DNA of 64,000 nucleotides from a virus, in the IMG/VR virus record IMGVR_UViG_3300035193_000067, positions 62,001 to 126,000 of that record, one strand, 5' to 3'. Below, piece after piece: positions 21,671 to 50,742 of this stretch. Position numbers and translations under genes: made by a program. The notes beneath the pieces are model-generated. The model did not search any database and was not told where the DNA came from. It was given only the letters and a program-made list of their open reading frames with translations. How positions within the stretch are numbered: position 1 is the first letter of the stretch; each line of letters opens with the position of its first letter.

Positions 21671-21701
21671 ATTATAGAACAGAGATTGTCGGGATTTTAA
21701 A
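21671..21701 (-). promoter_or_regulatory. Late-class promoter upstream of sheath gene
   Basis: Minus strand: TTTAAAATCCC (21701-21691), 14 bases, TATAAT (21676-21671). It is intergenic, about 75 bases before the sheath start. The same element with the same 14-base spacing precedes other virion genes at 27038, 41940 and (plus strand) 50712. Confidence 0.65.
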
Positions 21702-21711
21702 GATGGGTTGT

Positions 21712-22875
21712 TTACAGTTTAAAATAGTTAGTACCAAAATAATCACCGGATAAGGAGTCTCCTGATGCTGTAGGTATAGGTACTGCATTTGTTTTGTCAG
21801 CTATATATACGTCTCCAGAAGTCTTCTTATCTATAAAGTCTTCAATGAATATAGGTACAGACCCTCGCACTGCATAAATGTGCTCATACTGCTCCCCTCC
21901 CTGTCTGGGTTTATTAATTTCACCGTTCCAGGAGAATTGATTATTTAATGATATATGATACCATTCATCCGCAACAGATCTGTCAAAATAAGATCTTCCA
22001 AAAAACTCAAAAGCATTCTTGTTTGTGTAGTATGTAAAAAAAGCGCTAACAAGGTCAGACAGCTCAGCACGAGTATTGATACTATCGCCTACTACATCTA
22101 TATTTATGACCATATCAGCAGACTGAGAATATCTGTTCAGAATAGGATTGTCTGCATCAGTATATGAAGCAGATTGACCAACACTTAAGCCTAGCAAGGA
22201 CAGCAGCTGTGAATTTCCTCCAGTAATTTCAACTGAATTACGATCTGAAGGAGATGCAGCTCCTCCGGCTTCTATCTCCAAACAACCTGAAGAAGATTCT
22301 TTGAGCGTATAATAGAGTGCCTGAGTCTTATTAACCACTCTGACAATATCTGCCACAGACACTGAAGAGAAATCTGCGAACTGAGAAGGATCCAGAGTGA
22401 TAGTGGAGTATTGAGTATATTGATCCAGAGGAGTTGTTTTAATCTGAATATTCAAAGGGGATATCAATGTATTTAAATTAAAAGGCCCTGTACCAGTACC
22501 TGAAACAAAAGGAGGGTATTGAATTTGAGAAACAAAAGTACCACCTATACCCATAACCCGCTCTCTGTAAGAAGATGACGTGATGGAGATCATGGGGAAC
22601 TTATCCAGGGTATCACCGTATGCAGTAATGATATTAACTACAGTCTCAAGCCCTGATAAACCTTCATTTCCACCAAAGGAGAATTTTTGAATATTGGGAA
22701 TCTCTTCAATCTTGGAAAGACCGTCCTGATTCGTGTAATCAAAAAAATCAGTAAGTTCTTTTATGAAGACATCCTTGGCAGTCTCCTGAAGCTGACCAAA
22801 CCTGGATCTGTCGGTAGGATCAAAAGGCTGGCTGGATCTCATTTCCAAATAAGGTCTTGTTTGAGTTGCAACCAT
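21712..22875 (-). CDS. Tail terminator / neck structural protein (probable)
   Basis: A 387-aa protein directly upstream of the sheath operon. N-terminal half helical (FGQLQETAKDVFIKELTDFF) then a beta module about residues 150-235 with VSVADIVRVVN...LEIEAGG...LLSLLGLSVGQ, similar to the hook IN-like modules of the sheath. The C-terminal part (TRAELSDLVSAFFTYYTNKNAFEFFGRSYF) resembles the helix-strand layout of tail completion or terminator proteins. Position between head-neck genes and sheath suits a tail terminator. This is inferred from position. Confidence 0.5.
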   Translation of the reverse strand: MVATQTRPYLEMRSSQPFDPTDRSRFGQLQETAKDVFIKELTDFFDYTNQDGLSKIEEIPNIQKFSFGGNEGLSGLETVVNIITAYGDTLDKFPMISITSSSYRERVMGIGGTFVSQIQYPPFVSGTGTGPFNLNTLISPLNIQIKTTPLDQYTQYSTITLDPSQFADFSSVSVADIVRVVNKTQALYYTLKESSSGCLEIEAGGAASPSDRNSVEITGGNSQLLSLLGLSVGQSASYTDADNPILNRYSQSADMVINIDVVGDSINTRAELSDLVSAFFTYYTNKNAFEFFGRSYFDRSVADEWYHISLNNQFSWNGEINKPRQGGEQYEHIYAVRGSVPIFIEDFIDKKTSGDVYIADKTNAVPIPTASGDSLSGDYFGTNYFKL

Positions 22876-22878
22876 ATA

Positions 22879-23922
22879 TCACCACACCAGAGAGAAAGGC
22901 CCTACAGAGTCTTCTGCTCGAACCTTAAACGTTTGAGTCATTACTGTAAATCCTCTGGGATCAGATCCTGACCATGCAGTCAGAATGAAGCGACTCCCTT
23001 TAAAGGTACCGTCCATAAACTCAATTACTACATTAGGACCTTCCAGTTTCTCCTGATCAGATCCCACCTCAATACGAGAATCAAAAAATGAAAGACCCAC
23101 TGTCCAGAAGGATAGACCGTTTATTTCAGGATAATCACCATACTCTGATTTTACAATTGTTTTCTCAGGAACGGTCTTAATTACCTTGATAAAAGGACCT
23201 GTCTGATACTGCCCATCTGCATCCAGGTTTCCTAAAGGAATTTCAGAATACCTTGCCCGAACTATCTCAAAGAAAGGTGAAAGCACATTAATAGTGTCTC
23301 TATGAAGAACTGCCTTAAATCTTATCAAACCCGTTGAAGGATTATCCGTTGGAAGATTTGATATAGGACTCCAGGTAGATCCTGAGTCAGTGGAATAGTA
23401 AACATCAACTGAAGAATACTGACTTATGCGCTCGTATGTAACTGCTTCATAATCCCAAACACTACCTATGGCATCTCGTGTAAAAGGTTTATCACCACTT
23501 TCAAGACTTCCTTCAGTTTCCCCTGAAACTATTTGTACCTTTGAAGATTTGAAGTCTGTAGTTATTTCAAGGTTACTAAGAATTACGTCACCATCAGTAG
23601 GAGCCATCCACAAAGTCTTGTAGCCCCACTTAAAATACCCCGGTACGTAACCATCAAAAACACCATGACAGCTTCTACATTTCCGATCAGAGCTTGCATG
23701 AGACTTTTTGTAGCAACTGCAGGTATTACCTGATGTAGCGCCTATCCAAACTTCCACACGAACACCTGCCAGAGAAACCTCTTCCCGTAGAGAGGCAAGT
23801 TCCTTACCTGTAGTATTGTCTGCGGTAATCCTACGATTAATATCCCTGCCCCAGTAACCTACAGCAGTACCTCCCAGGCCTTTACAGCCATCCTTCGTAA
23901 GCCATGGAACACATGTTGACAT
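22879..23922 (-). CDS. Neck/head-completion structural protein with a Cys4 zinc site
   Basis: A 347-aa protein. Near the N-terminus it has CSC (C68, C70), eleven residues later CRSC (C82, C85), and then HGVFDGYVPGYFKWGY, a zinc-ribbon-like knot. The remaining two thirds are beta-rich, with DVYYSTDSGSTWSPISNLP and a C-terminal WTVGLSFFDSRIEV. It lies between a head-tail connector-like gene and the terminator-like gene, so a neck, stopper or head-completion role is likely. Zinc sites are unusual in neck proteins. Confidence 0.5.
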   Translation of the reverse strand: MSTCVPWLTKDGCKGLGGTAVGYWGRDINRRITADNTTGKELASLREEVSLAGVRVEVWIGATSGNTCSCYKKSHASSDRKCRSCHGVFDGYVPGYFKWGYKTLWMAPTDGDVILSNLEITTDFKSSKVQIVSGETEGSLESGDKPFTRDAIGSVWDYEAVTYERISQYSSVDVYYSTDSGSTWSPISNLPTDNPSTGLIRFKAVLHRDTINVLSPFFEIVRARYSEIPLGNLDADGQYQTGPFIKVIKTVPEKTIVKSEYGDYPEINGLSFWTVGLSFFDSRIEVGSDQEKLEGPNVVIEFMDGTFKGSRFILTAWSGSDPRGFTVMTQTFKVRAEDSVGPFSLVW

Positions 23923-23928
23923 AGGAAA

Positions 23929-24102
23929 CTACCGCCCTTCCAAAAACTCTAATACAAGCTCTTCCAGAGACCTCTTTTCATGAGGATCTTTTACTCTGGA
24001 AATCAGTACGGATATTCTCTCCGGATTGAATATGTTATTAAGTATTTCCTGACCTTCTGACTGAGGATCTGATAAATCAACCTCTATCTTTTTTTCAGTC
24101 AT
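23929..24102 (-). CDS. Small acidic protein in neck operon
   Basis: A 57-aa frame beginning MTEKKIEVDLSDPQSEGQEI and ending LEELVLEFLEGR. Its ATG overlaps the stop of the upstream gene (ATGA) and its stop is 6 bases before the next start, so it is packed like a real gene and translationally coupled. It is highly charged and helical. No family is recognised. Confidence 0.7.
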   Translation of the reverse strand: MTEKKIEVDLSDPQSEGQEILNNIFNPERISVLISRVKDPHEKRSLEELVLEFLEGR

Positions 24103-25025
24103 CAGTACGTACCAGGCATGTTCGAATTATAATAATTTCTGAAATAAGCACCTGTAGGGGCTGCCAGGATTCCCTGATAAAAACCATAACCAACACGGTA
24201 CTCTGATATAGAGAACCCTGTGTTGATATAGTGCATCTTAAATTCTCTGATGTCCTTTGAAATCTCCGAAGATAGTGAATCATACATGGGTTTCAACATC
24301 TGAGCATGCGTAATGGCAAACGAATGTCCGCTGTCCGAAAACTGCGGAATATCCGTATCCACCGCAAAAAGGAACTGGCTGCGAAGCCCTTCAAGTACAG
24401 CACACCTGATAAGCAACTCAGATCCATGCCAGAACGGAAAGTTGGACATTCCAAAAGTTACATATGGTTGAGCCTGATTAATTCGCTCAAGACCTGCCTG
24501 CAGATACAAAAGGAGCTGAGAATCACTATAACCCAATGTACAAAACTTTTCAGGATTGATAACCTTAATGGATTTATCCAACTGAAGACGTAACCTGGGA
24601 AGTAACGACAATACTACCGGAGTGTATACTTCCAGAAGTTGTACTCTAAAAACTTCCTCTTCCCCTGAAGCACGTCTAACTCTCCATGCGAACAAATACG
24701 CCCCTGAAGAATTTGTTTCACCTGAAGAGTCTCCCCAGGTTATGCCGTATTTTCCTGTGCCAATATGCTTTATCCGTCTGTTGTCAGGGATGGAAACAGG
24801 CCAGTATGATTCTGAATAAACTATTGTATTTGTATAGTCGTAAACATCAAGATACAAATACCCTGTAGGCTCAGTACCGCCGTTAGTCATCTGCTCTTCT
24901 ATATCTACAGGATTACCTTCATAATCCATTACTGATATATCCACCAACCTCTTGGAGTTGAGCATAGCCATCTCAACCTCATTGAGAACGGAAGGAGCGT
25001 TATGACCTGGTTGGATAATGAGCAT
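24102..25025 (-). CDS. Neck / head-tail connector protein (probable)
   Basis: A 307-aa protein with two parts. Residues about 1-150 are beta-rich (GYLYLDVYDYTNTIVYSESYW, ITWGDSSGETN). Residues about 150-307 are helical (LLPRLRLQLDKSIKVINPE, DSQLLLYLQAGLERINQAQP, SSEISKDIREFKMHYINT), which recalls the helical connector/adaptor proteins attached to the portal. It starts in a TAATG overlap with the previous gene. The connector function is inferred from layout and position. Confidence 0.5.
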   Translation of the reverse strand: MLIIQPGHNAPSVLNEVEMAMLNSKRLVDISVMDYEGNPVDIEEQMTNGGTEPTGYLYLDVYDYTNTIVYSESYWPVSIPDNRRIKHIGTGKYGITWGDSSGETNSSGAYLFAWRVRRASGEEEVFRVQLLEVYTPVVLSLLPRLRLQLDKSIKVINPEKFCTLGYSDSQLLLYLQAGLERINQAQPYVTFGMSNFPFWHGSELLIRCAVLEGLRSQFLFAVDTDIPQFSDSGHSFAITHAQMLKPMYDSLSSEISKDIREFKMHYINTGFSISEYRVGYGFYQGILAAPTGAYFRNYYNSNMPGTY

Positions 25026-25405
25026 TAATCACCCAGTACAATGAAAGTTACTACCGCCTGTGAGGAAGTTGCCTGCACTGTGGCTTCCGTAATGTTGCAT
25101 TTAGCAAGAAGAATGAAACCGCCAGCACCTATAGAGATCGTCTCAGCACCACCGTTTAAAATAACATCAACCGGAGCACTGGCACCGACATAGAATACTG
25201 ATCCTGAAGAGACTGTGCTCATGGGAAGAGATGTGGGAGAAGCTGTAGGGACACTAAGTGTCTGAGCACCTCCCTCAGCATACGTAATTGTAAGACCTGT
25301 TGTAGAGGAAGATCCTACGGCAGGAGATCCCAACAGAACACTTGAAGATGCACCGTCCTGCACGATTGGATAAGTAATACTACCTGTTATAGTTGATGTT
25401 GACAT
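25025..25405 (-). CDS. Small beta-rich virion protein
   Basis: A 126-aa Ser/Thr/Ala/Gly-rich protein (MSTSTITGSITYPIVQDG) with no charged clusters and a strongly beta pattern up to its end, AVVTFIVLGD. It resembles small capsid or tail decoration proteins. It lies between the lysis-like cassette and the neck genes. No family is recognised. Confidence 0.6.
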   Translation of the reverse strand: MSTSTITGSITYPIVQDGASSSVLLGSPAVGSSSTTGLTITYAEGGAQTLSVPTASPTSLPMSTVSSGSVFYVGASAPVDVILNGGAETISIGAGGFILLAKCNITEATVQATSSQAVVTFIVLGD

Positions 25406-25860
25406 TAATCAGCTCCTTGCAGCCCATATGAGAGACCTATTGCCAAGAGTCCCCCTGATATTATACCTACTATAAATAAAAATGATGGTGATTTATACCA
25501 TCTACTGTTTTCATTTAAAGATTGCCTGTACCGCTCTTCCAGTGCATCATAGTTCTTTTCGGACTTTCCCAAAGCGTCTTCATACTTATCGGAGATCTTT
25601 TCTGAGACTGCCAATTGGACCTTGTACTTGGAAATAAGTATTTCCTGCAATCGTATTTTTGTATCCAACTCAGGGATCTTTTTCTCTCGGATTAATGAAA
25701 GCTCTGAAAGATCTTTCAGCATTAAATCAGTAGTAGGCTCATCAAACCAGTATCCAGGAACATCGTTATATACCAAATACGCTTTATTGGAGTAACCCAG
25801 AGAATTCACAGAGAACAATGAAAACAACAACAGTAATACAACTGATACTACTTTCTTCAA
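25405..25860 (-). CDS. Secreted coiled-coil protein with C-terminal membrane segment (spanin-like)
   Basis: A 151-aa protein: N-terminal signal peptide (MKKVVSVVLLLLFSLFSVNS), a coiled coil about residues 55-120, and a C-terminal hydrophobic span (FLFIVGIISGGLLAIGLSYGL). No lipobox Cys is seen after the signal. Together with the two overlapping upstream membrane genes it looks like a lysis cassette, and this protein could be a spanin that bridges the envelope. It overlaps the upstream gene by ATGA. Exact class is uncertain. Confidence 0.5.
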   Translation of the reverse strand: MKKVVSVVLLLLFSLFSVNSLGYSNKAYLVYNDVPGYWFDEPTTDLMLKDLSELSLIREKKIPELDTKIRLQEILISKYKVQLAVSEKISDKYEDALGKSEKNYDALEERYRQSLNENSRWYKSPSFLFIVGIISGGLLAIGLSYGLQGAD

Positions 25861-26210
25861 TACCCCAGCTCCTCAAATTTATCCAGTTTTTGATCAAAGT
25901 CCATGGACTCAATCTCTTTATTGGTTTTAACGATCTCCTGATCTACTTCTGAAATGTTGGCATCGGTTTCCTTTAAAGAACCCTCAACCTCAATTATCTG
26001 CTCCTGTAGCGCTTCCTTATAACCTTTAAGATGCTCAGCCTCCTGAAGGTCCTCAGATATACCATTAGGCTTCTCAAAATCTACTGGAGGTAATATATCT
26101 TTTCTCTTAAATAAAGCAAACAAAACAACTGCCGCAACGCTGATAGCAGATAAAACAACTACAACATGATCAGACAACCATTCATATACTCTTTTTAAGA
26201 CAGTCTTCAT
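25857..26210 (-). CDS. Membrane-anchored coiled-coil protein (i-spanin-like)
   Basis: A 117-aa protein with one N-terminal membrane segment (VVVVLSAISVAAVVLFALF, about residues 16-34), then a periplasm-facing charged coiled coil (about residues 55-105). This is the layout of inner-membrane spanin subunits (Rz). Both ends overlap neighbours by ATGA, so the three genes 26518-25405 form one translationally coupled set. Function inferred from topology. Confidence 0.5.
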   Translation of the reverse strand: MKTVLKRVYEWLSDHVVVVLSAISVAAVVLFALFKRKDILPPVDFEKPNGISEDLQEAEHLKGYKEALQEQIIEVEGSLKETDANISEVDQEIVKTNKEIESMDFDQKLDKFEELGY

Positions 26211-26518
26211 TTTTTAGACTCGATCTTTTTCTCTATTGAAGCTTTTTTTGCAATGGTAACGGTAACAGTTTTATAAATCAGAAGATTCAAGCAACCCAAG
26301 CCACCACCTACCAAAAGCTTATCACCTAAAGAGTCCTCCGGAAGAAGAAGTCCACCAGCAGCTCCAAGTATTACAGGAAGGAAGTGGATAACCCGAAGAC
26401 CATTAACGGTATGAAAAAAATCAAACCTTGACTTTAAACCGTTGACAATAAAATGAACAATAACAGGGAGAAATATATAAGGACCAAAATCCTTAAAAAT
26501 GCTTACCAGTTCACTCAT
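26207..26518 (-). CDS. Small multi-span membrane protein (holin-like)
   Basis: A 103-aa protein with about three hydrophobic segments (IFLPVIVHFIVNGL; VIHFLPVILGAAGGLLL; LLVGGGLGCLNLLIY) and a highly basic C-terminus ending KKASIEKKIESKK. Size, topology and basic tail match holins, which time lysis. It is the first gene of an ATGA-coupled set with two coiled-coil membrane proteins, which supports a lysis cassette. No endolysin is adjacent. Confidence 0.5.
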   Translation of the reverse strand: MSELVSIFKDFGPYIFLPVIVHFIVNGLKSRFDFFHTVNGLRVIHFLPVILGAAGGLLLPEDSLGDKLLVGGGLGCLNLLIYKTVTVTIAKKASIEKKIESKK

Positions 26519-26529
26519 AACACACTCCT

Positions 26530-26976
26530 TTAAACGTTTGAACTTAAAACTTCAGTGATAAAAATCACCTCAACAGGCATATCCACCGTATCTGTGTTTT
26601 TAAATTCTACAACAACAGGATAACCGTTGAGATCTACCGATTTACCTGGGACATTTGCAGGAAGAATACCTGTACCTGAATAGATAGTATATGCAGCCTC
26701 AGATGTGCTGGTGCCGACTGCAGCCGCAGCCGCCTGACTGATACCTCCTACATGAATAGAGTCAACAGCGTAGGCAGAAACCTTGTTACCTGACACATCC
26801 GTAAAGTAACCCCCAAAGAAAACTTCCCTGGAAAGCTTGGTTGCATCCACTCCAACGGACCTAACAAGGATGGTTAGATTCTTAACCGGAGCAGAATATG
26901 TATTATCCCAAACACGATAAGCACCACCACCTGTAGGCACGCTTACATTTTTGACAGTCTGATTAAATTGAGGCAT
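26530..26976 (-). CDS. Small virion protein (head or decoration)
   Basis: A 148-aa protein beginning MPQFNQTVKNVSVPTGGGAY, mostly beta, ending VEVIFITEVLSSNV. It is the first gene behind a late-class promoter (27008-27038) and precedes the holin-like gene by 11 bases. Composition resembles other small structural proteins of this phage. No family is recognised. Confidence 0.6.
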   Translation of the reverse strand: MPQFNQTVKNVSVPTGGGAYRVWDNTYSAPVKNLTILVRSVGVDATKLSREVFFGGYFTDVSGNKVSAYAVDSIHVGGISQAAAAAVGTSTSEAAYTIYSGTGILPANVPGKSVDLNGYPVVVEFKNTDTVDMPVEVIFITEVLSSNV

Positions 26977-27007
26977 TTAGTCTCCTAAATAAAAGGTCAA
27001 CAATAAT

Positions 27008-27038
27008 AGTATAACAGCACGTATGTAGGGATATTAAA
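27008..27038 (-). promoter_or_regulatory. Late-class promoter upstream of 148-aa virion gene and lysis-like genes
   Basis: Minus strand: TTTAATATCCC (27038-27028), 14 bases, TATACT (27013-27008). The site is intergenic, about 32 bases before ATG 26976. It matches the sheath and fibre promoters in element and spacing. Confidence 0.65.
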
Positions 27039-27046
27039 GTGAGGAA

Positions 27047-27856
27047 CTATTCAGTGAGGTGCTTGAGAGCAAAGTCTTTAACTGTCGGATATCCTGCATT
27101 GCTGGCAAGGTACTCCCAGTCAAGATCCTTCAGATCAGATTCAATAGTTTCAATTTCATCGATCATGTCACGAGCTTTAATTCTATCCGCACCCTGGTCT
27201 TTTTCAGATCTCAGGCACAAACCTACTACACGAGGATCAGGCTCATTTGCATTCAGAATTTTCTCTTCCTTGGAAACTTCTTCATCTTCTTCAGGCTTAG
27301 CATCAGAAACAGATCTCCTGTTCATCAGTGCCGAAAATTTATCCTGTGCATTCATCATCTCTTCTTCGGCAGATGTACCAAACCGCTTAGCCAATTTTTC
27401 AAAATAATCATAATACTCTTCCTCAGATACGAGTCGAAGGATTGAAGGTTTGCGGTTAATCATTGCGCGTAATTCCATAGAACCTTTAATACCGTCAAAT
27501 GGTACAAACTGAGTCAGATTCATAGGATGCTTAACCCTGGGGATGTTGATAAAAATAGGCTCGCCCTCATATTTACAGGTTATTGAGATATTGGTAGTAC
27601 CCAGGTTCTGAATATAGATCTCAGATTCTTCCTCAAAGAGTTTAGTCCAGTTGGTTACAAAGCTGTTAGCGTTTTTTGTCTGTCGTTTAATCATTGTTTC
27701 ACTCTCAATTTCTCCAGCATGCTTTAGCATGAAGGGTTTTTTGCTGAAGACAGTACACTTGCCTGTTTTCAGCAGCATTCTTGCTTTGGCCGGTGATGTT
27801 TTTGAGATAAACTGATTATTTTGATCCAGAACTGGTACAGTTTTATCTGTGGACAT
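27047..27856 (-). CDS. Virion protein with RRXRR-like (IscB N-terminal-like) domain
   Basis: A 269-aa protein. The frame reaches back to 27922 but those codons cover terminator hairpins, and family-like sequence begins at MSTDKTVPVLD, so ATG 27856 is preferred. Residues about 7-45 read VPVLDQNN, then SPAKARMLLKTGKCTVFSKK and PFMLK, matching the RRXRR domain of IscB-type proteins (V-VLD, P-ARxLLxxGKA-V, PF-I-L). No nuclease domain follows; instead there is a beta segment (YIQNLGTTNISITCKYEGEP) and an acidic helical C-terminus. It lies just downstream of the major capsid gene. A head-associated role is inferred. Confidence 0.6.
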   Translation of the reverse strand: MSTDKTVPVLDQNNQFISKTSPAKARMLLKTGKCTVFSKKPFMLKHAGEIESETMIKRQTKNANSFVTNWTKLFEEESEIYIQNLGTTNISITCKYEGEPIFINIPRVKHPMNLTQFVPFDGIKGSMELRAMINRKPSILRLVSEEEYYDYFEKLAKRFGTSAEEEMMNAQDKFSALMNRRSVSDAKPEEDEEVSKEEKILNANEPDPRVVGLCLRSEKDQGADRIKARDMIDEIETIESDLKDLDWEYLASNAGYPTVKDFALKHLTE

Positions 27857-27880
27857 TTTCCAGCCTTCGCTGATCTCTCC

Positions 27881-27907
27881 AAAAAAGGAGGTTAAATAGA
27901 GACCTCC
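27881..27907 (-). terminator. Second intrinsic terminator in the capsid / RRXRR interval
   Basis: Minus strand: GGAGGT (27907-27902), 9-base loop, ACCTCC (27892-27887), then TTTTTT. It lies upstream of ATG 27856 and 44 bases beyond the first terminator, so the RRXRR-like gene sits behind two terminators in series. Confidence 0.65.
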
Positions 27908-27950
27908 CGGTTTGAGGTGCATTATTGCATAGCCTTGGGAGGTTCTGTTT

Positions 27951-27998
27951 TAAAAAAGAGGGGAGGGTCACAAAAGGAGGCGAAAAGCAACCCTCCCC
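27951..27998 (-). terminator. Intrinsic terminator after the major capsid gene
   Basis: Minus strand: GGGGAGGGT (27998-27990), a 21-base loop, ACCCTCCCC (27968-27960), then TCTTTTTT. The 9-bp GC-rich stem with T tract starts 15 bases after the capsid stop. Confidence 0.8.
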
Positions 27999-28012
27999 CA
28001 AAAAGCTAATGA

Positions 28013-29179
28013 TTATTTGGAACCTTTAGCAACACGGCGACCATCAGGAAGACCGAAGCCTACCATCTCAGTAAACATCCAACCCTTAACGGTTTCACCC
28101 AGAGCATACTTATTGTACGGCTCGCTGAAAAGCTCAATACGCTCACCCATAACACCGAGGTACTCAGGAGAAGTACAAGCATAGAAAGTACCGCTGGGGA
28201 TAACTTCCTGTACGCCAGTACCGGCAGCAGTCAGAATTTGAGCATTCATGATGTTACCAATGTAACCAGACAGCAACAGTTCACGCTCAGTAACCGGATC
28301 AACAGCAGAAGACATGGTTTTAACGATGTCAGAAAGCTCAGAACGGTTAATCAGGAACTGCTCCACCATCAAGCGGTGACGCTCTACCTGGTAACGTACA
28401 TCTTCAAAAGCACCAATACCCAAAGTACTGAAAGTGGTTTCGGTGTTTATAGCAGTGGAAGCAGCATCAAGAGCATTGATAGCAGCTTTGTCTTCCTGCA
28501 ATTCGATTTCCTGACGAGCTGTATCCTGAGCTCTTTCCAGGATGTCAAAATTAGCCTGATAGATGTCAACGATGTCTACAGGAGCAAAAGACGTAATTTT
28601 GAATTCTTCCGGAGTAATGTAGTTGGTTTTGATCCGTGATTCAGGAGTTTGACCATCCTGACCGATGATGTAGGCAACCGCACGAACATCCTTCGGAATT
28701 CTGAACAATTCAGCCTGTCCCAGTTTACGAGGCATGAAAATTCTGCGAGCAAAACCTTCATAGTCCAGGATAGCTTTGATCGGAAGAGAAAGCTCTTGAC
28801 CAATGCGATGGAAGCCACGACCACTCGGATCCTGAATAGCAGCTGTCAGTGCACGTCGTTGCTGCTCAAAAGAGGCTTCAACTTTGGAGGAAGTACGCAC
28901 CATTTGAAGACTGGAAGCGTTCTTTTTCGTTACATCGTTCAAGAGATGAGCAACCTGTTGCAGAACGTCTTTTTTGTCATATGCATTGACTTCACCCTTC
29001 GTATCAAACATACGATTGGCAGTTTTGGCAGCTTTATAACGAGTAGGGTTAAATTCCCCACTGGGATCATAAAGACTCTCTTCTCTTTTCGAAGAAACTT
29101 TTTTAACCGGTTTTACACGCATACGGCTAGGAGCTGTCTTCGAAGCACTCTTACGGAAAGGATTTTTCGTATTCTTCAT
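28013..29179 (-). CDS. Major capsid protein
   Basis: A 388-aa protein beginning MKNTKNPFRKSASK, with a very basic N-terminal arm (KPVKKVSSKR) that the prohead protease may remove. The body fits an HK97-fold capsid protein: helical N-terminal region, then PIKAILDYEGFARRIFMP, the E-loop/P-domain-like stretch AELFRIPKDVRAVAYIIGQD, long spine helix IYQANFDILERAQDTARQEIEL and A-domain-like C-terminus. It lies after protease, scaffold-like and decoration genes, and is followed by a strong terminator, as expected of an abundant product. Confidence 0.82.
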   Translation of the reverse strand: MKNTKNPFRKSASKTAPSRMRVKPVKKVSSKREESLYDPSGEFNPTRYKAAKTANRMFDTKGEVNAYDKKDVLQQVAHLLNDVTKKNASSLQMVRTSSKVEASFEQQRRALTAAIQDPSGRGFHRIGQELSLPIKAILDYEGFARRIFMPRKLGQAELFRIPKDVRAVAYIIGQDGQTPESRIKTNYITPEEFKITSFAPVDIVDIYQANFDILERAQDTARQEIELQEDKAAINALDAASTAINTETTFSTLGIGAFEDVRYQVERHRLMVEQFLINRSELSDIVKTMSSAVDPVTERELLLSGYIGNIMNAQILTAAGTGVQEVIPSGTFYACTSPEYLGVMGERIELFSEPYNKYALGETVKGWMFTEMVGFGLPDGRRVAKGSK

Positions 29180-29194
29180 AACATTATCTCCTTA

Positions 29195-29983: not shown

Positions 29984-30006
29984 ATCTCTCTCCTCATAGG
30001 CTAGTC

Positions 30007-31722: not shown

Positions 31723-31730
31723 AAACAGCC

Positions 31731-32657: not shown

Positions 32658-32688
32658 AAGATTATTCCTTTACAAAAGGTACTATACC

Positions 32689-32720
32689 AGTATAAGTTAA
32701 ACAGGTGTCGGTATCCTAAA
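32689..32720 (-). promoter_or_regulatory. Late-class promoter variant upstream of protease-capsid operon
   Basis: Minus strand: TTTAGGATACC (32720-32710), 15 bases, TATACT (32694-32689), ending about 31 bases before the TTG start. The spacing is one longer and the element is less perfect than the other copies, but CGACA follows as in the sheath promoter. Confidence 0.5.
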
Positions 32721-32745
32721 GCTCTGCAAAAATCCCATAAATAAA

Positions 32746-33185: not shown

Positions 33186-33187
33186 AA

Positions 33188-36944: not shown

Positions 36945-39900
36945 CTATATAGGTGTAGGCTCTTTTAATAGTACTGGGCCCCTAGAACGCACATGGTAAT
37001 GTACAATAACATCACTTGCACGGCTTGTGGTATCCCATGTAACCCTGATCGTTAAAGTACCTGGAGTCCCTGTTGTTATTTGTTCAATTGAATCCAACCA
37101 ATCTATTGAAGTAGGCTGTAATGTATTTTCAGTATTAGCTGTTTTCATATTTGGATAATCTGCAGCATCAATGTGCTGCGAGATTGCAACCAGTACAGAC
37201 GTCGTATTTCTGACTTGTAAAACAACATCAGTTATTAAAGATGCAACTTCTTCCGCCCCAGAAACGTCCTGAAGAACATTAGGTATTTTTATATCATATG
37301 TACCTGATGCAGTTCCACTGGGGACTGTAAACTGGTCAGATCTTTTGAGATCGATGTAATCATTGTACCTGTCGGATATGAGCTGTTTTGATGCTCTACA
37401 CCAATCTAAATAAGAATAATGCCCTCCATCATAAATAAAATCAGACGAGTTGATGTTCGATCCATCGATATGGTTAGGTGCGTTTAATGTGAGTGATGGT
37501 AATTGGTAGACGACTATTTTATCACTCGCATTATCCAGGGAATATAATTTTCCTTCGTAAATATCAGTATAATTTCCCTGGAATGAAAAAGTGTTATTAT
37601 ACAGTTCATTTGTCAGATCATCTGGGTCTAAATATAATATTTTTTTAGAAGAGTAATCGCCAAGTGCAACACATAGTGTATTAAAAAACGGTGAGACAGA
37701 TGAGGAAGTTAGTGATGACACTACAACGCTGTATGCATTTGAGCTATCGTCAATCGCTCCTGTAGATGTATTAATATTTCTGACATAGACATCTGCAGTA
37801 GAAGTGTTATCTCCATCCAACACAAATAATTTCTCACCCACAAAACACAGTGCATACGCCCGATTACTGATCCCTATTGGTCCAGCGATATTTGATAGTA
37901 CATTAGTATCCATATTGTATTGAAAATAAGTTTTTGCCCCGTCGACAATATGTAATATACCATCCTTCTCTACAATTCCACCATAGCCTGCAACCAAAGC
38001 GGCTTGATATTTGGTTGTTGTTATGTTCAACAGAGGATTGTAAATACGTACGTTGACACCTGTAAAATAATATAATTTGTCATCAGGAGCTATAAACCCC
38101 CTAGTGTAGGGAAGCAGTTCTGTTGCATCTAATATTTTTTCTCCAGTAATCCTATTATATACCCTGTTTTCAGACGCTATAGTACTTGTGACTATCACAT
38201 GTTTTTCACCAATCATTATTGACTGATAATTAGCAGGAGTATCAATATTAAACTCCGATTCAGCAGTCAGACCCCTAAACTCGACCCCCGCATAGTCAGT
38301 ACTTCCAGTGGTCACACCGTTCGAAATTTTAAATTTCTGCGCCGTAGACGTGATCGATCCCTGCATGTTTCCAGGATTAACTTCATCCCCGCCTAAATAC
38401 TCGTGATTAGGTGCATGAGGACCAACTGCCAGAGGATCTGTGGAGGTACCTGTACCTGTCAAAGTTGAATCAGTTGATACAGTGCTTAAAAAACTTCCTG
38501 CAACAGATCCTACAGTTATTGTACGAGATCCTTCAAGCCTTAATGATTCTTCTACTGTCCAATCCCCTCCAGTCCTGTTAATAATAAATCTCTGTATAGG
38601 CACAAACTCAGCAACGAGTGAAGAAAACTCTCCAAGATTCAACTCCTGAGGATAATATTGTTGAGCCAAACTCAAAGAATCGAAGTAGTCCTGACCAGGA
38701 ATGTAAATGAATCTTGCCAATTGTGAAGCAGCATCTTTGGTAACAGGAAGAGCATAAAGGAAAACAACACCATACTTTGCAGTAGGAATATCTGTAAGCT
38801 GCCACGCACCTCCAGTATACTGATTATATCTTGGAGCACCTGCATTTAAAGGAACTATGTCAGTAGAACCTGTAACCAGGTTAGTTAGAGCACCTGCACC
38901 TGTCAAATACACTTGAGAGTAATTGTTTTGAGTATTGTGAACAAGCAGCCTGGATTTCCTATCCTCATCTGCAACAACACACTCAGAAACAATAGGACGC
39001 CTTTCAGAAGCTGTCGTACTGCTTAATACAATACCTGAAACATCACCACCTGAGTATCTGTAAGTACCATGCAGATTATGCATTTCCTCATGAGATGCAG
39101 TGCTCATCCCACAACCGTGCATCTCTTCCAATCCAAAAAGGAATGTACCAGCACTGTTATAAACTACTGCACAGATCTGAACAGTATTAAAAGACCACGG
39201 CAAAGAACTCCAGGTAAAACTGCCGTCATAATACAAGTACTGGGTAGTTGTAGGAGCAGCAGTATAAGAACTGGAAACCCAACCATTGGCTACTCCGATG
39301 TCATCACCATTGTAAAGAGCTGATATATCAACTCCAGACAACGTTACTGTCCGTGCAGTAGTGTCTACTGCAGCCTGCTGATTATCCGGATCAGAAGTGT
39401 ATTGAAAACCTATAGGCTCCCCTGTTGCAGTAACATACCGAGACATTCTGGCGGCTGCAATTTCACCAGCTGCATCTACATGATAAAATTCATCAGTTGT
39501 AGAGCTACCACCTTGAAGACCTGAAAGACCATTGTGTACAGGGATTCCTGAAGACGAAACAGGTGCACCAAAAGCTGATTGAACAATTAATGACGTTCCG
39601 GATTTTGCAACAATAACTTTCCCAACTCGAATAGAAAAATCCACAAGGTTGTCAGGTATATCTGAAGGAGGTAATGCATTTTGCGCTTCTTCAAGCGTAT
39701 AAGAATTTAACCCGTAAACTACATATAAATTGGAACCGCTGAAATCAAGATATACCCAGTGTACTCCGTATTTATTGTTTGCCAGAGTCTGTAAAGATCC
39801 TGATCCATCATCGTATTGAAGATTATCAATAGCTGTCTGGGATGATACTACAGTATGACCACCAATACCATCACGGTAGATATAATCAAAAGTATCTGCA

Positions 39901-41864
39901 ACACTGGTATCAAAAGCTGAAGAAGTCTTCCTTCCTACTCCTCCATAAAAAACACCAGCGGTCAATTTTAAATTAAGAGTCCCGATTTCAGAGAGCATTG
40001 CCCCGTATGCCCACTCAGCAATTGCAGATCCTCTACCAATTGCCACCTCAACAAATCTCTGGGTAAGAGCCATGTTGAAGTCAAGGAACCCATTGTCATA
40101 ATTAACCAGAAGGACATCACTACCTTGACGGTATGCAAGATCAAGAGCTACTTTATCCCTGCTAAACAGTACTGCAGAGCTTGTCCCTGCAAGAACTGCA
40201 GGAGTACCTGAGTTATAATCCACATAAATATAGTTGATACTGTTGTCAGTAAGAACTAAATCAGGAGTTGCAGAGAACTGCACAAAACCTGTATCAGATC
40301 CAACAGCAGCTGAATCCTTACAAAGAACTACACCGGAAGACACATCAACTGCACCTGTAGTAGCGCTTACAGTTACTAAACCGCCTGAGATAAGACCTCT
40401 ACCCTGATGATAATTTATCATGTCCTGAATACTGTCTACAGTGGCTCCATCAATATCTGCCAGATGTACCTGATCAGCAGTGTAATCACCGTCAGCAGGC
40501 ACCACAGCACCCGTACGAGTATTAAAGGATGTAACGTAGGATCCTTTAATGGTTGCCAGGTCCTCATAATTCTTCAGGATGTCAGAGGCATAGACAGGTT
40601 TGGACATTGATCCATCCTGAAAAGAGATGGTTCTTCCGCTTATTGCTGTGTCTACTCCTATCAGAGATTTCTTAAGTCCAGGAGCGTAGTAAAGCTTTGC
40701 AGTGGAAGTTCCGTCAGTGACACAGACATGAGTACCTGTGTAGCTCAGGCAGGTAACTCCAGAAACTACGTAAGAGTCTATGTTTACCAAAGAAGCATTG
40801 TACCAGGAAACTACTGAATCAGCAAAGCTTGCCAGAAGGAACGTTCCATCACCCAACGCAACGACACCTGAAGCACCATTGAAGGACAGAACATCCACAT
40901 AAGCATACCCACTTATTGCAAAACGCTCCATCACATCCAAAGTACTGTTGCACAGATATACATAAGTGTTATCTACAGCAAGGCATCCGTTGGAAGAGTT
41001 CCCGCCAGACCTTACCACCGTACCTGCAAGAGCACCTGCATGAGTGTATACCTCAAATCCGTAGTTACCGGAAGTACCGATCTCTACAAACACATGAGTG
41101 TCATTTGCAGTCACATATGATTCATTTGAAGTAGTAGTGATGCCTGAATATGCAAAGGATGTTGACAAAGCCAGGGTAACAACATCGTATACATAAATTG
41201 TAGTGGTCGTATTGCAAGCTACAAAGATCTTCCCCGCAGCTACAGCAATACCACCTTCTGCAGGAGTAACCGAAGCAGACACTTCCACAACCTGATCAGA
41301 GACTCTTATTTTCGAAAGAGTATTGGAAGATAACCTGTAAATATACTGTCCAAAAATAGCAGTATTGTGAGCCGCTCCTCCAAAAGTGAGGGAAGAGTAC
41401 AGAGAAAGATCCTGAAACTCCACCCTCTCCTGCTGAAGAGGTACACGTGTGTCACTGACGTTGTAGGCACCTTGTTTCAGGTTTAGTACCGGATTGGCAG
41501 CAACTGCAATAGACCCGTCATAAACGTACTGAACAGTACTTGTAGCAGAACTTGCCAGGGTGTAAGTGGATCCTGTATCATCCGTATAACGCAGAATGAA
41601 CCCAGGGCCTCCTGTGTTGTCTGCCCAGATCGTAGGAATACCTACACCGCCTGGGTTGGAGGACTTCCCAGAGGGCTCAAAAGACACACCACCCAACCCT
41701 GTTACAGGGTCGCCATCTTTACCCAGCTTTGTTTCTACCGCCACCAGAGCGCCTGCAGGAACGTTCTGATGAGACGCCAGAACAAAATCAACACTATCGA
41801 TGAGAGCAGGAGCAAAAGTGTCTAATGCAATAGGATAATTTGAGGAGGGCCAAACTGTTGTCAT
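36945..41864 (-). CDS. Long tail fibre with two beta-propeller regions
   Basis: A 1639-aa protein. Residues about 1-130 are a beta-rich base (AGALVAVETKLGKDGDPV). Residues about 170-430 and about 1270-1500 carry repeated blade-like units with IYVYDVVT, YVYLCNST, VYVRNINTSTG and KLFVLDGD motifs, i.e. two propellers. Near residue 450-480 it has SFNTRTGAVVPADGDYTADQ, the segment many phage fibres carry before collar/trimer domains. Another fibre marker is HNGLSGLQGGSS. A late-class promoter precedes it by about 45 bases. It likely mediates host recognition. Propeller identity is by eye. Confidence 0.75.
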   Translation of the reverse strand: MTTVWPSSNYPIALDTFAPALIDSVDFVLASHQNVPAGALVAVETKLGKDGDPVTGLGGVSFEPSGKSSNPGGVGIPTIWADNTGGPGFILRYTDDTGSTYTLASSATSTVQYVYDGSIAVAANPVLNLKQGAYNVSDTRVPLQQERVEFQDLSLYSSLTFGGAAHNTAIFGQYIYRLSSNTLSKIRVSDQVVEVSASVTPAEGGIAVAAGKIFVACNTTTTIYVYDVVTLALSTSFAYSGITTTSNESYVTANDTHVFVEIGTSGNYGFEVYTHAGALAGTVVRSGGNSSNGCLAVDNTYVYLCNSTLDVMERFAISGYAYVDVLSFNGASGVVALGDGTFLLASFADSVVSWYNASLVNIDSYVVSGVTCLSYTGTHVCVTDGTSTAKLYYAPGLKKSLIGVDTAISGRTISFQDGSMSKPVYASDILKNYEDLATIKGSYVTSFNTRTGAVVPADGDYTADQVHLADIDGATVDSIQDMINYHQGRGLISGGLVTVSATTGAVDVSSGVVLCKDSAAVGSDTGFVQFSATPDLVLTDNSINYIYVDYNSGTPAVLAGTSSAVLFSRDKVALDLAYRQGSDVLLVNYDNGFLDFNMALTQRFVEVAIGRGSAIAEWAYGAMLSEIGTLNLKLTAGVFYGGVGRKTSSAFDTSVADTFDYIYRDGIGGHTVVSSQTAIDNLQYDDGSGSLQTLANNKYGVHWVYLDFSGSNLYVVYGLNSYTLEEAQNALPPSDIPDNLVDFSIRVGKVIVAKSGTSLIVQSAFGAPVSSSGIPVHNGLSGLQGGSSTTDEFYHVDAAGEIAAARMSRYVTATGEPIGFQYTSDPDNQQAAVDTTARTVTLSGVDISALYNGDDIGVANGWVSSSYTAAPTTTQYLYYDGSFTWSSLPWSFNTVQICAVVYNSAGTFLFGLEEMHGCGMSTASHEEMHNLHGTYRYSGGDVSGIVLSSTTASERRPIVSECVVADEDRKSRLLVHNTQNNYSQVYLTGAGALTNLVTGSTDIVPLNAGAPRYNQYTGGAWQLTDIPTAKYGVVFLYALPVTKDAASQLARFIYIPGQDYFDSLSLAQQYYPQELNLGEFSSLVAEFVPIQRFIINRTGGDWTVEESLRLEGSRTITVGSVAGSFLSTVSTDSTLTGTGTSTDPLAVGPHAPNHEYLGGDEVNPGNMQGSITSTAQKFKISNGVTTGSTDYAGVEFRGLTAESEFNIDTPANYQSIMIGEKHVIVTSTIASENRVYNRITGEKILDATELLPYTRGFIAPDDKLYYFTGVNVRIYNPLLNITTTKYQAALVAGYGGIVEKDGILHIVDGAKTYFQYNMDTNVLSNIAGPIGISNRAYALCFVGEKLFVLDGDNTSTADVYVRNINTSTGAIDDSSNAYSVVVSSLTSSSVSPFFNTLCVALGDYSSKKILYLDPDDLTNELYNNTFSFQGNYTDIYEGKLYSLDNASDKIVVYQLPSLTLNAPNHIDGSNINSSDFIYDGGHYSYLDWCRASKQLISDRYNDYIDLKRSDQFTVPSGTASGTYDIKIPNVLQDVSGAEEVASLITDVVLQVRNTTSVLVAISQHIDAADYPNMKTANTENTLQPTSIDWLDSIEQITTGTPGTLTIRVTWDTTSRASDVIVHYHVRSRGPVLLKEPTPI

Positions 41865-41909: not shown

Positions 41910-41940
41910 ATTATACTACATGCTATTTCGGGATTCTAAA
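41910..41940 (-). promoter_or_regulatory. Late-class promoter upstream of long tail fibre gene
   Basis: Minus strand: TTTAGAATCCC (41940-41930), 14 bases, TATAAT (41915-41910). It is intergenic, about 46 bases before the fibre ATG. Element and spacing match the sheath and 148-aa gene promoters. Confidence 0.65.
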
Positions 41941-41956
41941 GGCAGGAGGGATAGGA

Positions 41957-42688: not shown

Positions 42689-42865
42689 TTAGCTTAACGG
42701 GTTATCATTTTCTGAAGGAGTACATGTATCATAGTATTCCTCACACAACTCTTTCATGCAATAAGGCTTCTTCCCACCATAACACTTGGGACGGTCGGAC
42801 TCCTCTTTGACAATGCTGCTGTCAATCTCCGTAATTACTGCTACAGCTTTACGCTTCTTTGCCAT
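42689..42865 (-). CDS. Small Cys-rich protein, 58 aa
   Basis: ATG 42865 (MAKKRKAVAVITEID) follows AGGAGG with 7-base spacing; the extended frame upstream is unlikely. Residues include CYGGKKPYCMKELCEEYYDTC, with four Cys spaced 7-4-6, suited to metal binding. The ribosome site lies in the end of the preceding gene. Confidence 0.6.
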   Translation of the reverse strand: MAKKRKAVAVITEIDSSIVKEESDRPKCYGGKKPYCMKELCEEYYDTCTPSENDNPLS

Positions 42866-42866
42866 A

Positions 42867-43034
42867 TCAATCCTCCTGCAAAGGCTCTTTAAGTTCCCAG
42901 GATAACTCTCCGGAGGTCTCGACAACTTCTACAGTAGGCAGATCGTCCAATCCTTCTTCAAATCCTGTGTTTTCATACAGCCTGCGGAAACCTCCACAGG
43001 AATCAGGTACAAAAAATAAATGCATAGATGTCAT
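42867..43034 (-). CDS. Small hypothetical protein, 55 aa
   Basis: MTSMHLFFVPDSCGGFRRLY, with an acidic C-terminal half ending EPLQED. It starts at ATG 43034 behind AAGGAGAG (6-base spacing), and its stop lies two bases upstream of the next ATG. Gene packing and ribosome site support it. No family is recognised. Confidence 0.6.
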   Translation of the reverse strand: MTSMHLFFVPDSCGGFRRLYENTGFEEGLDDLPTVEVVETSGELSWELKEPLQED

Positions 43035-43047
43035 AATTAACTCTCCT

Positions 43048-43335
43048 TCAATCTTTCTCAGTCTCTGAGAGACCGTACCATTTTCTCAATTGAGATCTGC
43101 AAAACATTACCTGAGCTCGGCAAAACATTACCTGATTCCAGTAAACCTTCGGAAGATCTGCCCAATTATGAGTAGAACAAGATCTCAAAGCGGGACAGTT
43201 TCCATCTGGTGCCTCACAAACAACTGTAACGGAAATTCTATCAATCATGTCGGTTGCTGAAGATGTCCTTGCTTTTTTACCGAAAACAAGCTGCATGAAA
43301 TCCTTCAGCTTCTTTTTCTTGTATCTAGTCGTCAT
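43048..43335 (-). CDS. Tandem paralogue B, Cys-containing small protein
   Basis: A 95-aa protein starting MTTRYKKKKLKDFMQLVFGK. It is a close paralogue of the next upstream gene (43350-43619), including VVCEAPDGNCPALRSCS and the QLRKWYGLS ending. Unlike its partner it contains a duplicated octapeptide-like VMFCRAQ/VMFCRSQ, made by a 24-base tandem repeat at about 43095-43140. The CxxxxxxC...C pattern suggests a metal site. Function is not known. Confidence 0.7.
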   Translation of the reverse strand: MTTRYKKKKLKDFMQLVFGKKARTSSATDMIDRISVTVVCEAPDGNCPALRSCSTHNWADLPKVYWNQVMFCRAQVMFCRSQLRKWYGLSETEKD

Positions 43336-43349
43336 CTCCAAAGTCTCCT

Positions 43350-43619
43350 TCAATCTGCCTCAGTATCTGAAAGACCGTACCATTTTCTCAACTGAACTCT
43401 GCAGAACATCATCTGATTCAAATAACCCTCTGGTAAATCAAACCCGTTATGAGCAGAACAAGATCTCAAAGCTGGACAATTTCCATCAGGAGCTTCACAT
43501 ACTACGGATACAGCAATTCTATCAAGCATCTCATTTTCAGATGATGTACTTGCGGCTTCTTTACCAAAAACAAGCTGCATAAAATCCTTCAACTTCTTCC
43601 TCTTGTATTTAGTCGTCAT
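43350..43619 (-). CDS. Tandem paralogue A, Cys-containing small protein
   Basis: An 89-aa protein starting MTTKYKRKKLKDFMQLVFGK, with LDRIAVSVVCEAPDGNCPAL and the CSAHNGFDLPEGYLNQMMFC stretch. It shares about two thirds of residues with the following gene, and the ribosome-site leader AAGGAGATTTTGGAG is nearly identical for both. The start is the ATG behind that leader. Function is not known. Confidence 0.7.
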   Translation of the reverse strand: MTTKYKRKKLKDFMQLVFGKEAASTSSENEMLDRIAVSVVCEAPDGNCPALRSCSAHNGFDLPEGYLNQMMFCRVQLRKWYGLSDTEAD

Positions 43620-49048: not shown

Positions 49049-49082
49049 AATAGTAATTACTTTTTATGGAGGACCTGAAGAA

Positions 49083-49538
49083 TTATTTATTCTTTTGAAG
49101 CTCTTCCAGGGCGTCCTTGAGAGCTTCCTTCAGCATCTCCCGTTCTGACTCATCCCTCTTGCGGAGATCTGATTGAATGGTCTGAATGGAGGCTTTGTTG
49201 TTCTCCACAGAGTAATCCAGTTTGTCAATAAGGCGTACCGCAGCTATTCCTGTGGTAAGGAAGAATACAAGAAGAGCTATACCAATTCCTGCCTGCCATC
49301 TGTACAGAGTCTTGACAGATCTTTCATTTTCTATAGAGGTTTCCTTCAAATCATTAATTCTATCTGAAGCAGTACATACATGTTCTACAGGTATTGATGT
49401 AGAGATGTCACTCAATCTGTCTGAAAGGTGATTCAGTTCTCTTTTAACACTTTCTCTATAATCACTGCATGAATCTCTTTGAGCGTTTAAATCGTCCTGC
49501 AGGACTTCCAGGGTTGTTGGCATTTTCTTACGGACCAT
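49083..49538 (-). CDS. Coiled-coil membrane protein, holin/XhlA-like layout
   Basis: A 151-aa protein with coiled coils on both sides of one membrane segment (GIGIALLVFFLTTGIAAVRLI, about residues 84-103). It starts at ATG 49538 or ATG 49523. The layout recalls XhlA-like lysis accessory proteins and other single-span coiled-coil proteins. It is the first minus-strand gene after the divergent region. Function inferred from topology alone. Confidence 0.5.
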   Translation of the reverse strand: MVRKKMPTTLEVLQDDLNAQRDSCSDYRESVKRELNHLSDRLSDISTSIPVEHVCTASDRINDLKETSIENERSVKTLYRWQAGIGIALLVFFLTTGIAAVRLIDKLDYSVENNKASIQTIQSDLRKRDESEREMLKEALKDALEELQKNK

Positions 49539-49687
49539 GATGTGAGGACATTCCTTTGCATTGAATCAGATCTTCCAAGTTTCATTATATTACAGATTTA
49601 ATAGAATTTATTAAATACACTATCTATTCAGCTATATAAAAAATATTTTAATAAAAGTAGAATCTAAAATAATAGGATAAAGCCGGA

Positions 49688-50370: not shown

Positions 50371-50399
50371 TTGCTAAAAATAGGTGGGTGCTTTATGTT
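50371..50399 (+). promoter_or_regulatory. Sigma70-like promoter for the 65-aa gene
   Basis: TTGCTA, 17 bases, TATGTT, ending 50 bases before ATG 50449. A small CCACT/AGTGG hairpin follows in the leader. Confidence 0.45.
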
Positions 50400-50448
50400 A
50401 TGAATGAATCCACTTTGGTAGTGGTTTGTTAATTTAACGGAGGTAGAT

Positions 50449-50646
50449 ATGCGTAAATTAAAAGCTGATAAGATTTTGGACCAGATTAAAGAACTCAATA
50501 AGGAGCTTGAAGCTCATCAATCAAAATGTAAGCATACAAAAGTGATTGAGGTAACAGATGATTATGGTACGACTACAACGTGTGGAATATGCAAGCTTTC
50601 CAGATTTACACCACGATGTACTTACTGGTATGATGCGGATCAATAA
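50449..50646 (+). CDS. Small zinc-binding protein, 65 aa
   Basis: MRKLKADKILDQIKELNKEL coiled N-terminus, then CKH, CGICK and a later C (C27, H29, C45, C48, C57), a likely zinc site. It starts behind a GGAGG ribosome site. A stem (50666-50686) follows the stop. Function unknown; small zinc proteins of this kind are often phage regulators. Confidence 0.6.
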   Translation: MRKLKADKILDQIKELNKELEAHQSKCKHTKVIEVTDDYGTTTTCGICKLSRFTPRCTYWYDADQ

Positions 50647-50665
50647 GTATGCTGATTAATTAGTG

Positions 50666-50686
50666 TAATCTATCTTAAGTAGATTA
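50666..50686. repeat. Hairpin after 65-aa gene
   Basis: TAATCTA (50666-50672), loop TCTTAAG, TAGATTA (50680-50686). Seven perfect base pairs. No strong T tract follows, so its role as a terminator is uncertain. Confidence 0.4.
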
Positions 50687-50711
50687 TTGATACTACAATA
50701 TTTTAAGAGGC

Positions 50712-50742
50712 TTTATAAACGCTACCAAGCCTAGTATATAAT
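50712..50742 (+). promoter_or_regulatory. Late-class promoter (plus-strand) upstream of virion-like gene
   Basis: TTTATAAACGC (50712-50722), 14 bases, TATAAT (50737-50742). Same spacing as the minus-strand late promoters, and the element matches at 8 of the conserved positions. It lies 41 bases upstream of ATG 50784. Confidence 0.5.

What the first reader, a model, noticed from the sequence alone, without database searches (positions are those of the whole stretch)
21671..50742. A second promoter class: TTTAnAATCCCgACA element 14 bases from a TATAAT box before virion genes
By eye I see the same two-part motif at four intergenic positions with identical 14-base spacing between the CCC-ending element and the -10 box: 21701-21671 (sheath), 27038-27008 (148-aa virion gene and lysis-like cassette), 41940-41910 (long fibre), all minus strand, and 50712-50742 (virion-domain protein, plus strand). 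A variant with 15 bases precedes the protease-capsid operon (32720-32689), and a weaker one lies within a coding region at 47583-47551. The element is not TTGACA-like, while plus-arm accessory genes have plain TTGACA-N17 promoters. This suggests a dedicated late RNA polymerase factor encoded by this phage or an altered host polymerase. T4 late promoters have only a TATAAATA box, so this is a different scheme.
Basis: partly seen in the sequence, partly recalled or inferred. Interest (0 to 1): 0.75.

Follow-up and report, generated by a model that had tools for sequence, protein, structure and literature searches.

The report
Late-gene promoters of a phage clade
This large uncultured phage appears to switch on its virus-particle genes from a special promoter in which the usual "-35" signal is replaced by a phage-specific DNA word; the same word sits before the same genes in at least seven distantly related phages, and a conserved zinc/helix-turn-helix protein is the leading, unproven candidate for reading it.

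Summary
CTTTAnAATCCCGACA, then 10 bases (11 at the protease gene), then TATAAT lies at the five stated intergenic places. A matrix built from those five sites finds sites before the orthologous genes in relatives whose sheath proteins are about 55% identical. In four genomes never used for training the matrix again marks protease, sheath, a 107-aa gene and fibre genes; in one (192 kb) all 14 hits are promoter-placed, against 0.5 expected. All 21 fetched contigs with sheath identity of 50% or more have the element before sheath; the eight at 43% or less lack it. The sixth, in-gene site is not above chance. Sixty-four sites give yTTTARAATYCCnACA-N9/10-TATAAT, centred near -30, with an extended -10 (TGn) in about half. 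TTGACA-N17 promoters lie in a separate genome arm. No conserved sigma factor or multisubunit polymerase was found. Best reading: host sigma-A polymerase reads the -10 and a phage activator reads the -30 box, as at T4 MotA promoters but for late genes. Best candidate activator: a 207-aa two-zinc helix-turn-helix protein (genome 24581-25204, outside the window), present in all eight long motif genomes. The promoter class is well supported; mechanism and factor are inferred.

The parts
21671..21702 (-). Late promoter of the tail sheath gene (19119-21596): CTTTAAAATCCCGACAA-N9-TATAAT, 74 nt before the ATG
   Evidence: Direct reading; element with the same 9-nt spacer before sheath in all 8 long motif genomes and in all 21 fetched contigs with sheath identity >=50%
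27008..27039 (-). Late promoter of the 148-aa gene (26530-26976) and the genes after it
   Evidence: sites before the orthologue in G002, G007, G011 and before the gene just upstream of it in G005
32689..32721 (-). Late promoter of the protease-capsid operon (protease 31731-32657), spacer one base longer
   Evidence: the 10-nt spacer is kept in G000, G002, G005, G007, G008, G012; protease and capsid identified by PHROGs
41910..41941 (-). Late promoter of the 1639-aa long-fibre-like gene (36945-41864)
   Evidence: scoring sites before the orthologue in G007, G008, G012; G005 just under threshold at 9.4
50711..50742 (+). Late promoter of the 114-125-aa gene at 50751/50784-51128, the least consensus-like of the five
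   Evidence: scoring sites before homologues in G005, G007, G008, G012
52284..52315 (+). Probable weaker late promoter of the 244-aa paralogue (52363-53097): CTTAACAAAATCTACAG-N9-TATGAT
   Evidence: Score 8.7 to 10.8; accepted on position and paralogy, not on score alone
49584..49615 (-). Possible weak late promoter of the 151-aa gene (49083-49538): TTTAATAAATTCTATTA-N9-TATAAT
   Evidence: Score only 4.4 here; the orthologue in G012 has a good site (15.7), G005 a marginal one (9.6)
19119..21596 (-). Tail sheath protein, 825 aa, behind the 21702-21671 promoter
   Evidence: tblastn 38% to Rctr197k and 25% to the annotated tail sheath of Bacillus phage G
31731..32657 (-). Head maturation protease, first gene of the protease-capsid operon
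   Evidence: phrog_18299, E 8e-28
28013..29179 (-). Major head protein, downstream of the protease promoter
   Evidence: phrog_2522, E 1.5e-56
36945..41864 (-). 1639-aa long-fibre-like gene, behind the 41941-41910 promoter
   Evidence: Position and size only; no Pfam or PHROG match; homologues in six motif genomes, none in the three non-motif ones

Best explanation
These are clade-specific late promoters read by the host's primary sigma (sigma-70/sigma-A) RNA polymerase together with a phage-encoded DNA-binding activator. Sigma region 2 reads the normal -10 box TAtaaT, often with the extended TGn. A phage protein reads the 16-bp box yTTTARAATYCCnACA, which covers about -38 to -23 and so occupies the place of the -35 element; it holds the polymerase there, probably through sigma region 4, as T4 MotA (with AsiA) does at middle promoters. 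Early genes use ordinary TTGACA-N17-TATAAT promoters and need no phage factor. The best candidate activator is a conserved 207-aa protein (genome 24581-25204, minus strand, outside the window) with two four-cysteine sites and a helix-turn-helix. Shown: the element, its spacing, its conservation and the genes it precedes. Inferred: that it is active, late, activator-dependent, and read by this protein.
For: Sites before orthologous virion genes in eight genomes with sheath about 49-58% identical to this one; presence or absence at sheath follows one clade across 29 loci. Base preferences from 64 sites: TTTA core 84-100%, CC 89-100%, following A 98%, -10 T, A and final T 100%, spacer 9 (45 sites) or 10 (18); T and G of TGn at 59% and 50%. 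The longer protease spacer is itself conserved. Early-type TTGACA-N17 promoters lie only at genome 117.7-158.4 kb, with the same -10 type. No Sigma70_r2 in eight records; Sigma70_r4 only as non-orthologous genes of single phages; no Rpb1 domain, with the control ringing in 14 of 14 genomes. Candidate: 48% mean identity across seven relatives, present in all long motif contigs, not found in Rctr197k, G026 and G028; invariant Cys 5/10/25/28 and 101/106/132/134 and HTH residues; HTH models hit (HTH_23 E 2.5e-5; HTH_18 in 10 of 14 members); confident N-terminal 100 residues in the model. T4 middle promoters: box centred at -30, TGn in about half (PMC2988021).
Against: No transcript ends or binding data exist; 'late' is inferred from gene content. 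Other unannotated conserved genes share the phyletic pattern: a 59-aa zinc ribbon and a 227-aa Cys-rich protein occur in all seven relatives and in none of the three non-motif genomes, so the factor could be one of those. Diverged homologues of the candidate occur in G023 and G024, which lack this element; a different late box there was not convincingly shown. The AlphaFold model has no whole-fold match in PDB or BFVD. A highly diverged phage sigma (like T4 gp55) would escape the Pfam searches.
Confidence: 0.5

Rival explanations
1. Same scheme (host holoenzyme plus phage activator at -30), but the activator is a different conserved gene, for example the 59-aa zinc ribbon (genome 30640-30819) or the 227-aa protein (42863-43546).
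For: Both are in all seven motif relatives and in none of the three non-motif genomes; the 59-aa protein has a weak TFIIB-type zinc-ribbon match.
Against: Neither gave an HTH or other DNA-binding domain match; the 59-aa protein is small for reading 16 bp.
Confidence: 0.22
2. A phage-encoded or host alternative sigma factor reads the whole promoter: its region 4 or equivalent recognises TTTA..CC.A and its region 2 recognises TATAAT.
For: The element overlaps where region 4 would sit; phage sigma factors can be too diverged for Pfam; one relative has a 174-aa protein with a strong Sigma70_r4 match.
Against: No Sigma70_r2 anywhere; the r4 protein of G007 was found in no other genome searched and the G005 match is an HNH-like protein; the box reaches to -23, deep into what is normally spacer; the -10 is the same as in the early TTGACA promoters.
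Confidence: 0.17
3. Plain extended -10 host promoters whose upstream box is a repressor or DNA-structure site rather than an activator site; lateness is set elsewhere (copy number, antitermination).
For: TGn in about half of sites; extended -10 promoters can work without a -35 contact (PMC7403470).
Against: The box is held at a fixed 9-10 nt from the -10 across genomes of 36-60% GC; many sites, including four of the five in this window, lack TG and also lack a -35.
Confidence: 0.09
4. Chance resemblance picked out by eye.
For: Only five or six sites in this genome; a bare TTTARAATCCC also occurs in coding regions.
Against: Held-out genomes, orthologous placement, near-zero shuffle expectation.
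Confidence: 0.01

Closest known systems
T4 middle promoters (MotA box, sigma appropriation by AsiA/MotA)
   Same: sigma-70 -10 kept; phage box centred near -30 replaces the -35; extended TGn in about half; short, nearly fixed distance to the -10; some tolerance in the box sequence
   Different: Box sequence, length (16 against 9-10 bp) and distance to the -10 differ; no MotA or AsiA homologue found; used for virion genes, not mainly replication genes
T4 late promoters (gp55/gp33/gp45)
   Same: Used for virion genes
   Different: T4 late promoters have a TATAAATA box alone; here there is a long upstream box and an ordinary TATAAT
Phage zinc-finger late activators of the P2 Ogr/Delta type
   Same: Small phage zinc protein as (candidate) late activator working with host sigma-70 polymerase
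   Different: Ogr sites lie further upstream, near -55 (from memory); the candidate is larger, with two Cys4 sites and an HTH; no Ogr_Delta match over cut-off
Mu Mor/C activated middle and late promoters
   Same: Good -10, no -35, activator box near the -35 region (from memory)
   Different: Mor/C sites are dyads (from memory); this box is asymmetric; relationship of the proteins was not searched

Membership tests
T4-type middle promoter / MotA-AsiA system | Phage box centred at about -30 in place of the -35, with a sigma-70 -10 downstream | tested here: met
   Box spans about -38 to -23 upstream of TATAAT in 64 sites
T4-type middle promoter / MotA-AsiA system | MotA box sequence (a/t)(a/t)(a/t)TGCTTtA, 12 +/-1 bp from the -10 | tested here: not met
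   Consensus yTTTARAATYCCnACA, 10-11 bp from the -10 counted from ACA
T4-type middle promoter / MotA-AsiA system | MotA (MotCF) and AsiA homologues | tested here: inconclusive
   None in eight genomes, but no control genome carries a true copy
Phage-encoded sigma factor promoters | A phage gene with sigma regions 2 and 4, conserved with the motif | tested here: not met
   No r2; r4 only in non-orthologous genes; control genomes ring; extreme divergence not excluded
Phages with their own multisubunit RNA polymerase (phiKZ/AR9 type) | Rpb1-like catalytic subunit | tested here: not met
   PF00623: 0 of 8, control rings in 14 of 14; strongly diverged phage subunits might be missed
T7-type single-subunit phage RNA polymerase | RNA_pol domain PF00940 | tested here: inconclusive
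   No match, but no control rang either
P2 Ogr/Delta activators | Ogr_Delta zinc-finger domain | tested here: not met
   No match over cut-off in eight genomes
T4 late promoters | TATAAATA box as the only element | tested here: not met
   Ordinary TATAAT plus a conserved upstream box
Late promoter class in general | Transcription starts at these sites late in infection | not testable with these tools
   Needs infection RNA data; host unknown

The most novel reading that the evidence does not exclude
A previously undescribed family of two-zinc, helix-turn-helix phage proteins takes over the host sigma-A polymerase at a -30 box to switch on late genes: an independently evolved form of sigma appropriation, used for virion genes throughout a clade of large uncultured phages with contractile-tail genes, with the box changing as the protein diverges (as G023 and G024 may show).
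Probability: 0.4. Interest if true: 0.72.

Novelty: new variant of a known kind. Interest (0 to 1): 0.55.

Why it matters
Late-gene control is worked out for few cultured phages. Here comparative sequence alone yields a late promoter code (box, spacing, genes controlled) for a whole uncultured clade, and narrows the unknown reader to a few testable proteins, one of which has no whole-protein family or fold match in Pfam, PHROGs, PDB or BFVD. If the activator model holds, replacement of the -35 contact by a phage protein arose more than once and can serve late as well as middle genes. The matrix can also be used to call late operons in related metagenomic phages.

Tried and rejected
Nucleotide search of known phages for window 18000-34000: no match. 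Pfam on the sheath, fibre and 148-aa genes: no family. Sigma region 2 and region 4 searches: no conserved sigma; the G005 r4 match is in an HNH-like protein. Candidate protein in cultured phages: no match; in bacterial genomes: one 3.5-kb contig of a Planctomycetota MAG, too thin to name a host. The first structure job with four sequences was poor (pLDDT 56); with 14 sequences 80, still no whole-fold match. Unseeded motif search recovered the more numerous TTGACA class and did not cleanly separate this box, so the evidence for the box rests on seeded, held-out tests. A late box of different sequence in G023, seeded from sheath, terminase and a DUF7249 gene, found no further sites, and random sets of upstream regions reached its score in 3 of 60 trials: left as inconclusive. 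The in-gene site at 47583-47551 was rejected as not above chance. An early fit with a low threshold drifted to doubtful sites in G002 and G005; those lists were not used as evidence.

Full report
What is there. The window is bases 62001-126000 of a 163,407-bp viral contig. At the five intergenic positions named, the sequence is as described: CTTTAnAATCCCGACA, then 10 bases (11 at the protease gene), then TATAAT or TATACT. (In the 17-bp block used for the matrix the same spacers count as 9 and 10.) Downstream genes include the tail sheath (homologue of the annotated sheath of Bacillus phage G), a head maturation protease followed by the major head protein (PHROGs), a 1639-aa fibre-like gene and small genes next to them.

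Is it more than chance? Five sites in one genome cannot settle this, so I used relatives. The search for related loci gave IMG/VR contigs encoding the sheath at 35-60% identity. A matrix trained only on the five sites of this genome found sites in G002, G005 and G007 before the orthologous protease, sheath and other late genes. A matrix trained on G000, G005 and G007 was then applied to G008, G011, G012 and G017, which it had not seen. In G012 all 14 hits of score >=10 on both strands lie just upstream of genes, against 0.5 expected in shuffles; in G008 it was 11 of 13 hits, against 0.8 expected. In AT-rich G011 the total number of hits is not clearly above shuffles at score 10 or 12, and only placement and orthology carry the case there. 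Across five held-out genomes 87% of late-orthologue upstreams score >=10 against 6.8% of others, p about 1e-12. 'Others' include further late genes, so the contrast is if anything understated.

Clade distribution. Before the sheath gene, all 21 fetched contigs with identity of 50% or more have the element (scores 13-33), with a 9-nt spacer and 25-108 nt before the matched start; the eight with identity of 43% or less do not (scores 3 or less), nor does Rctr197k. Several of the 21 are near-identical contigs and one is this phage's own species, so the number of independent lineages is smaller, roughly a dozen.

Anatomy. Sixty-four promoter-placed sites from eight genomes give yTTTARAATYCCnACA, spacer 9 (45 sites), 10 (18) or 8 (1), then TATAAT; T and G of the extended TGn are present in 59% and 50%. 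The one-base-longer spacer of the protease promoter is kept in six of the seven genomes with a scoring site there. Taking the -10 as -12 to -7, the box covers about -38 to -23 and is centred near -30.

Two promoter classes. All 14 TTGACA-N16/18-TATAAT-type promoters of this genome that are placed before genes lie between 117.7 and 158.4 kb, on both strands, whereas the new-type sites placed before genes lie between 24.6 and 112.7 kb, plus a weaker one at 114.3 kb. The -10 boxes are of the same type. This argues for one sigma factor and two ways of recruiting it.

What reads the box? Nothing in the searched genomes matched sigma region 2, and the region-4 matches are unrelated genes of single phages. 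No Rpb1-type polymerase domain was found, with working controls. The single-subunit polymerase, MotA and AsiA searches have no true positive control and are inconclusive. Among conserved genes one protein stands out: genome 24581-25204, 207 aa, 42-50% identical to its relatives within the motif clade, and immediately upstream of the 107-aa gene, which itself carries the element in seven of eight genomes. It has two invariant four-cysteine sites and an HTH; ten of 14 members match HTH_18 weakly and seven match HTH_23 (best 2.5e-5). The predicted structure is confident for the N-terminal zinc-ribbon-like part and the HTH, without a whole-fold relative. It occurs in all eight long motif contigs, was not found in Rctr197k, G026 and G028, and is strongly diverged in G023 and G024, which lack the element. 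This is a correlation along one phylogeny: 49 genes of this phage are found in all seven motif relatives, and nine of these in none of the three non-motif genomes compared. So the assignment is a lead, not a proof.

How it most likely works. Host polymerase with its primary sigma reads the -10 (and TGn where present); the phage activator binds the box in place of the -35 contact and holds the polymerase there, so that virion genes wait for the activator. This is the logic of T4 middle promoters: a MotA box centred at -30 replaces the -35, with TGn in about half (PMC2988021), and phage remodelling of sigma region 4 favours extended -10 promoters (PMC7403470). Steps shown: the DNA element, its spacing, its conservation and the genes it precedes. 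Steps inferred: activity, timing, activator dependence, identity of the activator.

Membership. It is not a T4 middle promoter (box sequence not met), not a T4 late promoter, and no Ogr/Delta protein was found. It works like a MotA-type promoter but is a distinct, apparently undescribed late class; searches of the open literature found nothing on it, though that library omits most subscription journals.

Noticed in passing
Genome 134556(+), 138167(-), 156244(-), outside the window (window-relative 72556, 76167, 94244): Three early-type promoters carry TTTAGAATCCCGC, a late-box core, inside the spacer after TTGACA, much closer to the -10 than in late promoters; possibly sites where the late activator shuts early genes off, possibly just a repeated early promoter.
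   Followed up: partly
Genome 145059-145090(+), outside the window (window-relative 83059): A full late-type site (score 25) with no called gene downstream; its start would fall at a short perfect hairpin (AATCGTCAT/ATGACGATT) in a non-coding stretch, perhaps a small RNA or leader.
   Followed up: no
Genome 117.7-158.4 kb (window from about 55650 onward): Fourteen TTGACA-N17-TATAAT promoters, several nearly identical, before mostly small genes: an early-promoter family.
   Followed up: partly
G023 (IMGVR_UViG_3300045256_000135), upstream regions: Fourteen copies of CTCCTTGATTTCtCga..aTCATcATTATGAT before genes, far above the shuffled score: a repeated promoter or operator of another kind.
   Followed up: no
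L022 1162-1686 (G007 about 146.6-147.1 kb): 174-aa protein with a zinc-ribbon-like start and a strong Sigma70_r4 match, seen in this relative only.
   Followed up: partly
Genome 30640-30819(-), outside the window: 59-aa zinc-ribbon protein with a weak TFIIB-type match, conserved at 44% in all seven motif relatives; alternative candidate for the late factor or a co-factor.
   Followed up: partly
L170 (JALOQQ010000100.1): The only relative of the candidate activator found in bacterial genome assemblies, on a 3.5-kb contig binned to a Planctomycetota MAG; a weak hint at host or a binning error.
   Followed up: no
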